37,799 nt of DNA from assembly GCF_900095385.1 (NCBI RefSeq), contig NZ_FMID01000026.1, positions 1 to 37,799 of the forward strand, given 5' to 3'. Within the stretch, counting starts at the first letter, position 1; each line of letters starts with the position of its first letter. The position numbers and the translations under genes were made by a program. The stretch comes from Methanoculleus chikugoensis. Its GTDB lineage: Archaea > Halobacteriota > Methanomicrobia > Methanomicrobiales > Methanoculleaceae. The notes beneath the pieces are model-generated. The model was not told where the DNA came from and searched no databases. It worked only from the letters and a program-made list of their open reading frames with translations. Below are positions 2,537 to 35,825 of this stretch, in pieces.

Positions 2537-3151
2537 TTACCATCGAAGTATGTTAACTGCCATGAATCGTGAGGGCGTTACTCGTGTAATCGCATACGAT
2601 TGGCCGCCCGCCGGCCTGATCTCCACGGTAAACTGATGGTCGATCCCCACAGTGACATCATCCGGAATTCCCACCGTCAGCGTGTACTGCTCAAACGGTT
2701 CAAGGAGAAGATCGTCATTGCTGTTCAGCCGTTCGTAGATATACCACTCCCCACGGGAGGCATACCCGCTGCCTGCGCCGACGTTTGTGGTCGTGCTGCC
2801 GGGTTTTGTCGTTCTCGCCAGGGTTTTGACGTTGTTTGCATCCGAATAGAGTATCACGACGTTATCAAAATCGATGGCACCGCTACCGGGCGAGAGCTTG
2901 ACCGTGAACAGGATACTTTCGAGACGCTTATCGGCAACATTTGCCATCCCGATAACGTCTCCGACTACCTCTACGGACGAACTGGTCTGCGCAACGCCCG
3001 TGTGCACGACCTCCTGGCTCTTCTGCGTCGCGAAGAACCCGGCGCCGAGCACCACGTACGAAAAGACCGCCGCGACGACGATGAACGCGATCAAGACGAC
3101 CGCCGCCTCAAGCCCGGTGAACGCATCTTCTTTTCTCATCAACCTGCTCAA
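2537..3151 (-). CDS. Archaellin (type IV pilin-like filament subunit), paralogue 1, TTG start
   Basis: The N-terminus has a short charged leader, the DAFTG cleavage site for the prepilin-type peptidase, then a hydrophobic helix (LEAAVVLIAF onward) followed by GAGFFATQKSQEVVHTG. This is the assembly helix of archaellins. The C-terminal part is a divergent beta-rich domain that would face outward. I place the start at the TTG of 3149-3151, not at the ATG at 3137-3139, for two reasons. An AGGAGG box at 3161-3166 is correctly spaced for the TTG. That start also gives the same 13-residue leader as the other two paralogues. The gene has its own promoter and lies 383 bases downstream of paralogue 2. 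Confidence 0.9.
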   Translation of the reverse strand: MSRLMRKEDAFTGLEAAVVLIAFIVVAAVFSYVVLGAGFFATQKSQEVVHTGVAQTSSSVEVVGDVIGMANVADKRLESILFTVKLSPGSGAIDFDNVVILYSDANNVKTLARTTKPGSTTTNVGAGSGYASRGEWYIYERLNSNDDLLLEPFEQYTLTVGIPDDVTVGIDHQFTVEIRPAGGQSYAITRVTPSRFMAVNILRW

Positions 3152-3233
3152 GGAACCTTTCCTCCTGTTATCGGGATCCGGGCGAACGCCTTTCTGGATC
3201 GAAACGATTACATGGAGTATATGCACAACCCGA

Positions 3234-3243
3234 CATAAAAATG
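3234..3243 (-). promoter_or_regulatory. TATA-box promoter of archaellin paralogue 1
   Basis: Read on the minus strand, the sequence is CATTTTTATG, followed 19-20 bases later by GCATATACTC (3215-3224). The same two blocks with the same spacing precede paralogue 3 (TATA at 4868-4876, GCATATACTC at 4849-4858), with 21 of 27 positions identical. Conserved promoters imply co-regulation of the two units. Confidence 0.65.
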
Positions 3244-3523
3244 ATCTCTCTCAAAAATCGTCCACTCGCCGGACCGGGAGAACTTCATGGAAGATATTCA
3301 CGGTGCCGAGTAAAAGACCGGGCGCGCATGAAAGTCCATCTGCCTGGTGGGGGGATAGTACGGAGAGTGGAGGGCCATCTCCATGTCTGGTTGGTCTTCC
3401 ATGAGCAATGGTAGATACAATACCCTGAAGCGATCGTCATTAACCCATTGCCGGGGAAAGCAGGGCGTTACCGGGCGAGCTGGTGGATTGTATCGCCGGG
3501 TAAGAGTTCGCACAAAGAACCCG

Positions 3524-3530
3524 AAAAAAA
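3524..3530 (-). terminator. T-run terminator after archaellin paralogue 2
   Basis: On the minus strand a run of seven T residues begins five bases after the stop codon at 3535. This closes the paralogue 3-paralogue 2 transcription unit and supports separate transcription of paralogue 1. Confidence 0.6.
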
Positions 3531-3534
3531 GAGA

Positions 3535-4170
3535 TTAATAGAGGATGTTTACCGGGTAGATCCCTGCCGGAGCCGTCCTCTTCAGCGCAAAGACCGCACC
3601 CACAGAGGGCTGCAGGTTGACCGTGAACGGCACGTTCACCTTTGCGGTCCCTGGGGTCGAGACGCCGATGATGAACTGCTCGCCGGGCTCAAGGATCGTA
3701 TCAGTGTTTGCATTTACCTTCTCGAGAATGCACCACTCGCCCAATTTATCGCTGTCATCTTCTAAATCGGGTGATTTCTTCATTTTTCCTGATGCCACCT
3801 TTAGGCTATCAGCATTACCGGTCGAATTATACTTGACATCCGGAGACCGTGTCTCTGGATCGGTGTAGGTTACAACCATCTTGCTGACATCAAGTGCCGT
3901 GCCCCCGGCGGTGTTGCCGATGGTGAACTTGATGTATTGCAGGTTCTCGCCTCCAGTCGTCGAAATTCCGTAGACGTTGCCGATGACCTCCATGCTGGAG
4001 CTTGCCTGCTGCACGCCGGTGTGGACGACTTCCTGGCTCTTCTGTGTCGTGAAGAACCCGGCGCCGAGTATGACGTACGAGAAGACCGCGGCCACGACGA
4101 TGAACGCGATCAAGACAATCGCGGCCTCAAGGCCGGTGAATGCATTATCATCCTTGAATAAAGTTCTCAT
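3535..4170 (-). CDS. Archaellin, paralogue 2
   Basis: This 211-residue protein has a 13-residue leader ending in NAFTG, then the long hydrophobic helix (LEAAIVLIAF) and GAGFFTTQKSQEVVHTG, nearly identical to its two neighbours. The C-terminal domain is quite different, with a charged loop around residues 90-125. The start ATG (4168-4170) follows a GAGGTGA ribosome-binding site that overlaps the stop codon of paralogue 3. The two genes are 11 bases apart and probably translationally coupled. Filament subunits of this kind are exported and cleaved, then assembled by the archaellum motor complex; no motor genes are in the window. Confidence 0.92.
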   Translation of the reverse strand: MRTLFKDDNAFTGLEAAIVLIAFIVVAAVFSYVILGAGFFTTQKSQEVVHTGVQQASSSMEVIGNVYGISTTGGENLQYIKFTIGNTAGGTALDVSKMVVTYTDPETRSPDVKYNSTGNADSLKVASGKMKKSPDLEDDSDKLGEWCILEKVNANTDTILEPGEQFIIGVSTPGTAKVNVPFTVNLQPSVGAVFALKRTAPAGIYPVNILY

Positions 4171-4181
4171 CTTTCATCACC

Positions 4182-4784
4182 TCAGTACAACTCGTAGTAA
4201 CCGTTTCCAATCAGTGCCGGCGGCGCGGTCTTCGTCATCGGGAGCGCTGCACCGATATCCGGTTTGATGTCGATGTTGAACCGAACGTTGGGCCCGATCG
4301 CTTTACCCTTGAACCCCTTGTCGCCCTCACCGGTCAGCGGGATCGTGATCATGACCATCTCGTGTTTCTCGAGAAGGTGGTTATCATTCTTCTGTTTCCC
4401 GACGAACTCCCGTTTTACCTTGGTTTGTCCCTCGGATTTAGAATCCACATCGACAAACGTCACGAGATGCTCCGTTGTCGCCACCGTGTAGGTCACCTTC
4501 GTCATGTCGACCGGCGATCCGCCGGCTGCAAGCTGCAGGTAGAAGCTCACCTCTCCAAGGTAGGCCGTACTCGATGCCTGGGCAATCACCGGCCCGGATA
4601 GTTCGAGCGTCGAGCTCGTCTGCGCAACGCCTGTATGCACGACCTCCTGGCTCTTCTGGGTCGCGAAGAACCCGGCGCCGAGTATGACATACGAGAAGAC
4701 TGCGGCCACGACGATGAAGGCGATCAGGACGATCGCGGCCTCAAGGCCGGTGAATGCGTCTTCGTTTCTCATCATTTTGCTCAT
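4182..4784 (-). CDS. Archaellin, paralogue 3 (first gene of the archaellin unit)
   Basis: This 200-residue protein has a leader ending in DAFTG at residue 13, a hydrophobic assembly helix, and GAGFFATQKSQEVVHTG, which matches paralogue 1 through that point. The outer domain (residues about 60-200) is Lys-rich and diverges from both neighbours. The start ATG lies nine bases after an AGGAGG box. The promoter lies at 4868-4876. Near-identical helices with divergent outer domains suggest either major and minor filament subunits or antigen-like diversification. Confidence 0.92.
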   Translation of the reverse strand: MSKMMRNEDAFTGLEAAIVLIAFIVVAAVFSYVILGAGFFATQKSQEVVHTGVAQTSSTLELSGPVIAQASSTAYLGEVSFYLQLAAGGSPVDMTKVTYTVATTEHLVTFVDVDSKSEGQTKVKREFVGKQKNDNHLLEKHEMVMITIPLTGEGDKGFKGKAIGPNVRFNIDIKPDIGAALPMTKTAPPALIGNGYYELY

Positions 4785-5143
4785 GAAACGTTTCCTCCTG
4801 TTACCGGAGTCCGAATGAGCCTATCATCCGGAACAATACGGTTCTTTTGAGTATATGCGTAAGCCTGTATAAAAAGTTATTCAAACAGTAGGGGATTTGA
4901 AAACTGCCCTTTTTGATAATGAATCCGTATAAAATCCCTTTTAACGGCCCGCATCGGTCTCAGACAAGTATTTGTAGCCGGAGGTACAACGATACCTGTA
5001 CCGAAAAACCACGCGGATGACCGCCCCGTTTTGGAAAAAACGTTTCGAAATGGGAAATATAATGCAATTTCCGGGTACCGGAAACGGAGAGGCGGATCGG
5101 CCGCACGGGATGGTCCCAATCGAAGGGGAAGAAGGAGCTGGAT
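4785..5143. other. Divergent intergenic region between archaellin 3 and the secreted protein gene
   Basis: It contains the archaellin promoter (4849-4876). It also has two TATA-like elements for the rightward gene: CGTATAAAA at 4926-4934 and AAATATAAT at 5055-5063. The second is embedded in a GGAAAT (5053-5058) / ATTTCC (5067-5072) inverted repeat, which could act as an operator. An 80-codon minus-strand frame there is unconvincing. Confidence 0.45.
4868..4876 (-). promoter_or_regulatory. TATA-box promoter of the archaellin 3-2 unit
   Basis: CTTTTTATA on the minus strand lies about 85 bases upstream of the start codon. A conserved GCATATACTC block sits at 4849-4858, where transcription should begin. 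The block is shared with the paralogue 1 promoter at the same spacing. Confidence 0.65.
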
Positions 5144-13862: not shown

Positions 13863-13977
13863 CCCCGGACACGGATTCCCATGGGCTATCGCCGTTGGGG
13901 GAGGGGCTGACGGGGAGGGGGGAGCATCCCCCCTCCCCTGTCTCCGCCCCCGTGCATGGTGATATTTCCGCGGTCCA
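13863..13977. repeat. Dispersed structured repeat, copy 1 (short, core inverted)
   Basis: The flanks (CCCCGGACACGGATTCCC at the left, ATTTCCGCGGTCCA at the right) match copies 2 and 3 in the minus orientation. The core between the ATCGCC (13888) and TGGTGAT (13957) borders is in the plus orientation. The core holds a hairpin with 12-base perfect arms, GGGGAGGGGGGA and TCCCCCCTCCCC, around GCA, one G-C pair longer than in copy 2. The middle section of the full-length element is missing. Confidence 0.75.
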
Positions 13978-14255
13978 GCGTATGGGTATTTATGGCAATT
14001 TCTACTGTTTCCGTAGTCCCCCACGATTCTGTGTACCGGGGTATATCATCGCTCTGCTTGTCCTATTTGCCACGATAGCAATCCCAACGCCATCTCACGC
14101 CCACTCATCTATTGCACTCGTACCTCCGGCACGCCTTCCTCCTGAGTGTCCCCATACCTTCCCTTCTCACTCACCCCCCGCCGTCGAACCCCCTCTCCCT
14201 CGCGCTACCCATAAATACCCGGAACCGGCAGATACCCCTCATCGAGGCAAAGGCG

Positions 14256-26470: not shown

Positions 26471-26580
26471 GCAATTGTTGCCCTTTTCGAGGCTTGTGTG
26501 GTTTTACAGTAGCATGAGCATCAGAAGTGCATGTGTGACCCCGATACACAGAACAGTCAATGTGACAGATCTCCATACAC

Positions 26581-26759
26581 TGGACCGTGGGGGTATCGCC
26601 ATTGGGGGAGGGGCTGACGGGGAGGGGGAGCATCCCCCTCCCCTGTCTCTACCGATCAGGGAACTCTATAACCCCCACCCCACCCGCGCTTCGCGCTCCT
26701 CCCCCGCCCCCCGGGCGGGGGCAGTGCGTGGCGATATTCACCAGAAATCCGTGTCCGGG
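26581..26759 (+). repeat. Dispersed structured repeat, copy 2 (full length)
   Basis: This 179-bp copy begins TGGACCGTGGGGGTATCGCC and ends AAATCCGTGTCCGGG. It contains three hairpins: GGGGAGGGGGA/TCCCCCTCCCC (26619-26629 with 26633-26643), GCGC-TTC-GCGC (26686-26696) and CCCCCGCCC/GGGCGGGGG (26701-26709 with 26713-26721). Inverted ATCGCCA / TGGCGAT borders enclose the hairpin region. Confidence 0.8.
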
Positions 26760-35141: not shown

Positions 35142-35401
35142 GTCTACCGCGCTTCGCGTGCGATTAGACTGTTCGCGGTATTACTGCCTGATTCTATTCC
35201 CATCCCATCTTGCGAGATCTTTCGCTATTTAGGAATGTATCATCTGCGTTGTTCGTGGTCTCTTGCCGAGAGCACGGGGTGACTCTGAAGAAGAACCATG
35301 CACGGCTTCCCACCGGCAGTCCAAGATCTTCGGTCTTCTTCTGCTCCTGCATTTCGGCCAGTCGCACGCCGCACCTGGCGGTGCTCGAACGGTGCCTGCC
35401 T

Positions 35402-35583
35402 CCCCGGGGCACGGATTTCCCCAGGTATCGCCACGCACTGCCCCCGCCCCTCGCGGGCGGGGGAGGAGGCCGAAGGCCGGGTGGGGTGGGGGTTACAGGT
35501 GCCTACTATAAGGTAGAGACAGGGGAGGGGGCGTGCCCCCTCCCCGTCGGCCCCTCCCCTAATGGCGATACCCCCACGGTCCA
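35402..35583 (-). repeat. Dispersed structured repeat, copy 3 (full length)
   Basis: This 182-bp copy aligns end to end with the reverse complement of copy 2. The three hairpins are kept while bases change in pairs. The short hairpin is GGCC-TTC-GGCC here (35468-35478) against GCGC-TTC-GCGC in copy 2. The top pair of the G-rich stem is G-C in place of A-T. The third stem has identical arms but a different loop. Confidence 0.8.
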
Positions 35584-35825
35584 CTGCACACGGGGAGATG
35601 CAGGAGATGGGGTGGAGCCCCGGCTTGCTCTGGAGGATATGGCTTTCCACCCAGTACGCCATGACTACACATCTCTTTACTGATGGAGACCGGGGAGTTC
35701 ACCTCGCGAACCCTTTCGTAAATCCTCCTGCAAGGTGGCGGGTGAGAAGTGCCTGGGCAGGCGAGCGCCGCCGGATAACAAGCCGCCAGGATACGCGAAG
35801 CGTGCGAGCTGAAAAAAAGAGGGGG

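What the first reader, a model, noticed from the sequence alone, without database searches (positions are those of the whole stretch)
26581..26759. Dispersed ~180-bp intergenic repeat whose hairpin stems covary between copies
Three copies lie in the window (13863-13977, 26581-26759, 35402-35583 reversed). Between copies 2 and 3 the short stem changes GCGC to GGCC on both sides with the TTC loop kept. The G-rich stem changes its top pair. The third stem keeps its arms but not its loop. Copy 1 lengthens the G-rich stem by one matched G-C pair. Paired changes point to selection on structure or to a hairpin-based mobile element (MITE-like, with GGAC/GTCC-type ends and ATCGCCA/TGGCGAT inner borders).
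Basis: partly seen in the sequence, partly recalled or inferred. Interest (0 to 1): 0.75.

Follow-up and report, generated by a model that had tools for sequence, protein, structure and literature searches.

The report
Shuffled hairpin repeats filling methanogen intergenic DNA
Methanoculleus genomes carry dozens of copies of a ~190-base hairpin repeat between genes, a relative of which occurs across its whole order; it looks like a non-coding mobile-DNA parasite that rides inside other small transposons and is reshuffled by recombination, and its matched stem changes are real but need not mean a working RNA.

Summary
Window copies 2 and 3 are full-length members and copy 1 is a short form of a high-copy repeat family: about 50 places in this genome and similar numbers in most of 34 (of 35) Methanoculleus species. 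The element is about 190 bp: 23-nt arms, an 8-bp closing stem TATCGCCA/TGGCGATA, hairpins H1-H3 and constant linkers. Covariation is real (112 sequences, 79 double-sided changes against 19 in shuffles). But H2 exists almost only as GGCC or GCGC without one-pair intermediates, H1 loops occur in both orientations, and the core is flipped relative to its arms in some copies: the signature of arm homogenisation and spacer inversion at least as much as of selection on an RNA. Copies avoid genes and promoter regions, favour convergent gene ends, show no clear strand preference, and gave both breakpoints of an 8-kb inversion. In a sister genus and several Methanoculleus species arms+core sit inside a ~450-bp MITE (TIR GGTAGTGC, 8-bp target duplications); core-free 137-bp versions exist, so the repeat was loaded into a MITE and amplified. 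The H2-CTCCTCC-H3-GGCAGT-P1' domain recurs in other families with different complementary stems. RAYT/REP is not supported. I found no prior description.

The parts
26571..26759 (+). Copy 2, full-length repeat element (arm A + core + arm B), between a tetrapyrrole-methylase gene and ilvD
   Evidence: core by profile search 26594-26736, 23-nt arm limits from 100 copies, flanking genes
26571..26593 (+). Arm A (CCCnnTnCAGTGGACCGTGGGGn type)
   Evidence: conservation drops to about zero outside 23 nt in 63 copies
26594..26601 (+). P1 5' strand TATCGCCA (closing stem, pairs with 26729-26736)
   Evidence: 97% of cells paired in 44 copies
26604..26614 (+). P2 G-rich strand GGGGGAGGGGC, partly complementary to the CCCCCACCCC strand upstream of H2
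   Evidence: RNA folds of several copies; not covariation-tested
26619..26643 (+). Hairpin H1 GGGGAGGGGG-AGCAT-CCCCCTCCCC; loop variable and found in both orientations in the family
26686..26696 (+). Hairpin H2 GCGC-TTC-GCGC (GGCC-TTC-GGCC in copy 3)
   Evidence: 28 GCGC/TTC, 24 GGCC/TTC, 28 GGCC/TCC, no one-pair intermediates
26701..26721 (+). Hairpin H3 CCCCCGCCC / GGGCGGGGG, preceded by linker TCCT and followed by CAGT
26729..26736 (+). P1 3' strand TGGCGATA
26737..26759 (+). Arm B (nCCnnTGGAAAGCCGTGCnCGGG type)
35403..35593 (-). Copy 3, full-length element (H2 of GGCC type), downstream of a carbamoyl-phosphate synthase large-chain gene and before a convergent OpuAC gene
   Evidence: core 35426-35570; neighbours
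13864..13986 (+). Copy 1, short form: arm B, P1, P2, H1, P2', degenerate P1', arm A; no H2/H3. A short form is also at the matching place in G006, a full form in G005
35330..35400 (.). Second, unrelated short hairpin repeat (CGGTGC..GCACCG / CTGGCC type) abutting copy 3; the same kind is found inserted inside other cores
   Evidence: sequence; insertions inside cores L026, L035, L040, L069, L073, L074

Best explanation
This is a non-coding, non-autonomous palindromic repeat family of Methanomicrobiales: arms plus a multi-hairpin core, working like a selfish mosaic repeat. SHOWN: it is dispersed at tens of copies per genome in intergenic DNA, away from promoter regions. In a sister genus and several Methanoculleus species the arms+core were captured by a small IS-type MITE (TIR GGTAGTGC, 8-bp target duplication) and multiplied with it. 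An 8-kb inversion between two species has both breakpoints in copies. Modules differ between copies: core orientation, short versus full form, inserted second repeats. INFERRED: copies in this genome, which lack the recognisable MITE ends, are old insertions, tandem duplicates and products of ectopic recombination or gene conversion. Stem complementarity is kept largely by template-switch or conversion repair of one arm from the other (hence two-pair swaps, inverted loops and an inverted core), with some selection for the hairpins during past mobility. Enrichment between convergent genes mostly reflects selection against insertion in promoters and genes; a mild 3'-end role cannot be excluded.
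For: Copy number and spread. Covariation beyond shuffles. No H2 intermediates; loop pairs AGCAT/ATGCT 30/2 and CGTG/CACG 5/2. Arms A..B 38, B..A 6, B..B 4, A..A 1. 8-kb inversion bounded by copies, and short/full forms at matching places. Context of 109 copies: 53 convergent, 45 tandem, 11 divergent, against 57/158/112 for element-free long gaps (Fisher P=7e-10 and 3e-7), none inside genes, tandem orientation 26 same/19 opposite. MITE with sharp ends and 8-bp duplications (exact in L376 GATTCTTC, L379 GAGGAATA, L380 CGATATCA, L385 GGAAAAGG; more with one mismatch). Same MITE with core in Methanoculleus species, e.g. L401 duplication GGATTTTC. Core-free 137-bp versions with duplication AAATTTTC (L422). 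Arm homogenisation and spacer inversion as known processes: PMC8604942, PMC8794818.
Against: No autonomous partner was identified (IS1595 family absent; Y1 transposase absent from most element-rich genomes; only nested IS110 genes in one MITE copy). The MITE left end was not found in the window's own genome, so mobility there is inferred. Arms ending CCC/GGG lack target duplications. The conserved linkers CTCCTCC and GGCAGT across families suggest constraint beyond arm homogenisation.
Confidence: 0.6

Rival explanations
1. A functional structured RNA (trans-acting or a 3'-UTR element) whose stems covary under selection; high copy number comes from mobility of the RNA gene.
For: Fold z-scores of -3.9 to -5.9 in four of five copies; covariation above shuffles; H2-CTCCTCC-H3-GGCAGT-P1' architecture conserved in other families with different complementary stems; G.T exceeds A.C at pairs in the fitted alignment (89 vs 50).
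Against: No orientation bias relative to tandem genes (26 vs 19); core flipped relative to arms in some copies; no G.T excess in the unfitted alignment A1 (per-pair counts); H2 changes lack intermediates; no Rfam match; most copies look interchangeable and many are rearranged.
Confidence: 0.15
2. A DNA-level functional site between gene ends (bidirectional terminator or insulator, nucleoid-protein or topoisomerase site) kept by selection, like proposed roles of bacterial REP/BIME.
For: Strong enrichment between convergent genes, no strand preference; positions shared between species, e.g. the copy 2 site in about ten species.
Against: The same position is empty, rearranged or holds a remnant in other species; the pattern also follows from selection against insertions in promoters; no T-tract or protein site identified.
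Confidence: 0.15
3. A REP/BIME family mobilised by a RAYT or IS200/IS605-type Y1 transposase acting on hairpins.
For: Intergenic hairpins in mosaic arrangements without target duplications at arm ends.
Against: PF01797 is absent from this genome and from most element-rich genomes, while the search rings in control genomes; the genome with most Y1 matches (G033, 18) has few elements.
Confidence: 0.04
4. A simple MITE whose own ends are the 23-nt arms (CCC...GGG), moved by an unidentified transposase.
For: Sharp loss of conservation at the arm ends, imperfect terminal inverted repeats CCCnnTnCA.
Against: No target duplication excess (2.49 vs 2.27+-0.17 in shuffles); arm types occur in mixed combinations; wherever amplification is clearest the unit is longer with different ends.
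Confidence: 0.15

Closest known systems
MITEs (non-autonomous IS derivatives), reviewed in PMC10969869
   Same: Short, non-coding, multi-copy, intergenic, stable secondary structure; in G036 and some Methanoculleus the carrier has TIRs and 8-bp target duplications
   Different: GC-rich rather than AT-rich; the repeat is cargo inside a MITE in some species and stands without MITE ends in this genome; no parent IS found
REP/BIME elements of bacteria (PMC2817692, PMC3116915; RepRanger survey PMC12306157)
   Same: Intergenic hairpins at high copy, mosaic and inverted arrangements, favour gene 3' ends
   Different: Larger multi-hairpin unit; no RAYT; the RepRanger species table, in the part read, lists no Methanomicrobiales
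ERIC/BOX-type modular enterobacterial and pneumococcal repeats (from general knowledge; BOX also mentioned in PMC10969869)
   Same: About 100-200 bp modular structured intergenic repeats of unclear function
   Different: Unrelated sequence; core flips relative to arms; relatives found in several families of one archaeal order
IS110-family elements (bridge-RNA elements, PMC11208160)
   Same: Two IS110-family genes lie inside one MITE copy (L413)
   Different: Nested insertions, not the partner; the core occurs without any IS110 gene in nearly all loci read

Membership tests
MITE (the ~450-bp carrier in G036 and some Methanoculleus) | Terminal inverted repeats | tested here: met
   GGTAGTGC...GCACTACC; in the 137-bp version about 27 bp
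MITE (the ~450-bp carrier in G036 and some Methanoculleus) | Fixed-length target-site duplication | tested here: met
   8 bp in most checked copies, several with one mismatch; also L401, L422
MITE (the ~450-bp carrier in G036 and some Methanoculleus) | Related autonomous IS | tested here: inconclusive
   PF12762 absent in 8 genomes; other IS families not tested
MITE (the 190-bp repeat itself, as in the window) | Target-site duplication at its ends | tested here: not met
   no excess over shuffled flanks
MITE (the 190-bp repeat itself, as in the window) | Terminal inverted repeats | tested here: met
   imperfect: CCCnnTnCA at both ends, then two divergent arm types
REP/BIME with RAYT | Y1 (RAYT) transposase in the genome | tested here: not met
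   0 in G000 and most element-rich genomes
REP/BIME with RAYT | Intergenic, palindromic, high copy, near gene 3' ends | tested here: met
Known structured RNA family (Rfam 15) | Match at gathering score | tested here: not met
   only a tRNA in the window
Structured RNA under selection | Stepwise compensatory change and strand-specific transcription | tested here: inconclusive
   covariation present but no one-pair intermediates in H2; transcription not testable with these tools

The most novel reading that the evidence does not exclude
The core (P1-P2-H1-H2-CTCCTCC-H3-GGCAGT-P1') is an ancient, order-wide structured module of Methanomicrobiales, an RNA or single-stranded DNA signal recognised in trans, that has been recruited by successive unrelated mobile carriers in different genera and is kept because it is recognised, not merely because hairpins self-repair.
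Probability: 0.22. Interest if true: 0.75.

Novelty: new variant of a known kind. Interest (0 to 1): 0.52.

Why it matters
A repeat at roughly 50 copies per genome in nearly every Methanoculleus species, with relatives in several families of the order, does not appear in Rfam or in the papers searched, and it shapes these genomes (inversions, intergenic arrays). It offers a natural test of how far hairpin 'covariation' can arise from mutation (arm repair, loop and core inversion) rather than from selection on RNA, and a clear case of a structured repeat being loaded into a MITE and amplified.

Tried and rejected
RAYT/Y1-driven REP: PF01797 absent. IS1595 as parent of the 8-bp-duplication MITE: absent. 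Autonomous copy between MITE ends: the best candidate (L413) holds two nested IS110 genes, not a partner. Target duplications at the 23-nt arms: none. Clean empty sites for the stand-alone 190-bp unit in a species pair with about 93% identity (G005/G006): none usable, because the gaps are full of other hairpin repeats. A hammerhead-like CTGATGAG in the left extension: variants break it (CTGACGGG), dropped. G-quadruplex as the conserved feature: H1 in G105 is GGGGGCGAAGCCCCC, so the hairpin is kept and the G-tract pattern is not. Strand bias from G.T versus A.C pairs: 89 vs 50 in the fitted alignment but no excess in the unfitted one, inconclusive. Literature searches on Methanoculleus or Methanomicrobiales repeats, archaeal MITEs and REPs: no description of this family.

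Full report
OBSERVATION. The three copies exist as described. A profile of 44 copies places cores at 26594-26736 (+), 35426-35570 (-) and a partial core at 13887-13962 (+). Each full core is flanked by 23-nt arms outside which conservation is nil. Copy 1 is a short form: arm B, P1, P2, H1, P2', P1', arm A, without H2 and H3. At the matching place G006 also has the short form, while G005 has a full form.

COPY NUMBER AND SPREAD. The window's genome (G000, 2.65 Mb) has about 50 places (79 BLAST pieces) and 42 matches to a 3'-domain pattern with none for the reversed control. 34 of 35 species of the genus have matches, mostly 20-50 listed each. The genus is Methanoculleus by named contigs. In the same family G036 (another genus) has 40 and G035 about 23 weak short forms, while G037-G039 have none.

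ANATOMY. Arm A CCCnnTnCAGTGGACCGTGGGGn; TATCGCCA; GGGGGAGGGGC; TGAC; H1 GGGGAGGGGG/CCCCCTCCCC; TGTCTCTACC; variable spacer; CCCCCACCCC; H2; TCCT; H3 CCCCCGCCC/GGGCGGGGG; CAGTGCG; TGGCGATA; arm B nCCnnTGGAAAGCCGTGCnCGGG. Arm order in core orientation, full copies with both arms classed: A..B 38, B..A 6, B..B 4, A..A 1, so core and arms have been flipped or exchanged relative to each other.

COVARIATION. On the MAFFT alignment of 44 copies the four stems are 97% paired, with 30 double-changed cells against 9.5 in shuffles and 0-3 in slid controls, although the number of double-changed pairs (4) is not above shuffles. On 112 distinct copies from G000, G005, G006 and G036 aligned to the covariance model, no shuffle reaches any of the five measures: 19 pairs against 6.9, 79 cells against 19.4. 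That alignment leans towards the structure and rows are related, so these are not probabilities. The pattern of change is informative. H2 occurs as GGCC-TTC-GGCC (24), GGCC-TCC-GGCC (28) and GCGC-TTC-GCGC (28), with no one-pair intermediate among these 80. H3 shifts from CCCCCGCCC/GGGCGGGGG to CCCGCCCCC/GGGGGCGGG in L011 and L016. H1 loops occur in reverse-complement pairs, AGCAT 30/ATGCT 2 and CGTG 5/CACG 2; very short loops could pair by chance. Multi-base changes in both arms at once, together with spacer inversion, are what template switching between inverted-repeat arms produces (PMC8604942; for RNA hairpins PMC8794818), and gene conversion between copies gives the same two-pair swaps. 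At the tetrapyrrole-methylase/ilvD site (copy 2), present in about ten species, H2 is GCGC in some and GGCC in others. So paired changes are real, but selection on an RNA is only one of two sufficient causes.

CONTEXT. With a simple codon-position gene caller on Methanoculleus loci, 109 copies had both neighbours called: 53 convergent, 45 tandem, 11 divergent, against 57/158/112 for long gaps without the repeat (Fisher P 7e-10 for convergent excess, 3e-7 for divergent deficit). None lies inside a gene. Orientation between tandem genes is 26 same to 19 opposite. The gene caller is crude (starts are uncertain), but stops and strands are what count here.

REARRANGEMENT. In a 200-kb comparison of G005 and G006 (mostly about 90-94% identity), an 8-kb segment is inverted with both breakpoints in two inverted copies. 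Other copies differ in form or orientation at matching places, and a second short hairpin repeat is inserted into several cores at different points.

MOBILITY. Forty G036 copies show what the carrier is. The unit is about 430-480 bp, ends GGTAGTGC...GCACTACC, and is flanked by 8-bp direct repeats, exact in L376, L379, L380 and L385 and with one mismatch in others. The same unit occurs in G001, G016, G018, G008, G024, G004 and others. Versions of about 137 bp with the same ends and an 8-bp duplication but no core exist (L422, also L419, L423), so the arms+core segment was inserted into a MITE and amplified with it. In G000 no such MITE left end was found, and the arm ends there lack target duplications. 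Its copies are therefore best read as older insertions, tandem duplicates and recombination products; this step is inferred. No autonomous partner was found: Y1 transposases are absent in most element-rich genomes, IS1595 is absent, and two IS110 genes in L413 are nested insertions.

DEEPER RELATIVES. The covariance model and the pattern CTCCTCCYCCN{3,30}GGRGGCAGT recover relatives in other families of the order. Outside the pattern itself, GATA/GATG/GATT follows at the expected distance and an H2 stem precedes, with wholly different complementary sequences: GCACGGCC/GGCCGTGC (G105), GCCCGCC/GGCGGGC (G121), GCCCGGCC/GGCCGGGC (G122), GGCCC/GGGCC (G088, G093). Two pattern hits, G154 and G041, look like coding sequence and were not used. 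Short forms also occur (G035, G098). This is the strongest hint that linkers and architecture are under constraint across the order.

CONCLUSION. The finding is real and larger than stated: a genus-wide, high-copy, GC-rich mosaic hairpin repeat with relatives in several families of the order, partly spread as cargo of a MITE and reshuffled by recombination. It behaves like REP/BIME, ERIC/BOX or MITE-type repeats but fails the REP-RAYT test and, for the stand-alone unit, the target-duplication test. A functional RNA is possible but not shown.

Noticed in passing
window 35330-35400; L026, L035, L040, L069, L073, L074: A second short dispersed hairpin repeat (two hairpins such as GCACCTGACGGTGC and CTGCCCTTCGGCCAG, ~45 nt) with stems that differ widely between copies; it is inserted into H1 or next to H3 of several cores.
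   Followed up: partly
L125-L134 (G006:C1 about 977 kb to 985 kb) versus L135-L144 (G005:C14): 8-kb inversion between two species with both breakpoints in inverted copies of the repeat.
   Followed up: partly
L129 18286-18432 and L139 17802-17948: A 320-bp intergenic stretch containing the repeat is 100% identical between G005 and G006 although the genomes differ by about 7% around it: recent transfer or conversion.
   Followed up: no
L413 1005-4683: Two IS110-family genes, apparently nested insertions, lie inside one MITE copy in G036.
   Followed up: partly
L419, L422, L423, L425: Short ~137-bp core-free MITEs, TIR GGTAGTGCTC, with an 8-bp duplication seen in L422.
   Followed up: yes
L067, L091 (tetrapyrrole-methylase/ilvD gap): Another simple repeat, CACGCGAAGACGCGAAGAACGCGAAGG, fills the gap in species lacking the hairpin element.
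   Followed up: no
window 2961-4813: Three diverged ~220-nt direct repeats (72-83% identity to the first), probably within duplicated genes.
   Followed up: no
L330 (G121:C47): Tandem array of the relative with a shared spacer TTCCGGATTCTACCAATGAACCTCC at a contig end.
   Followed up: no
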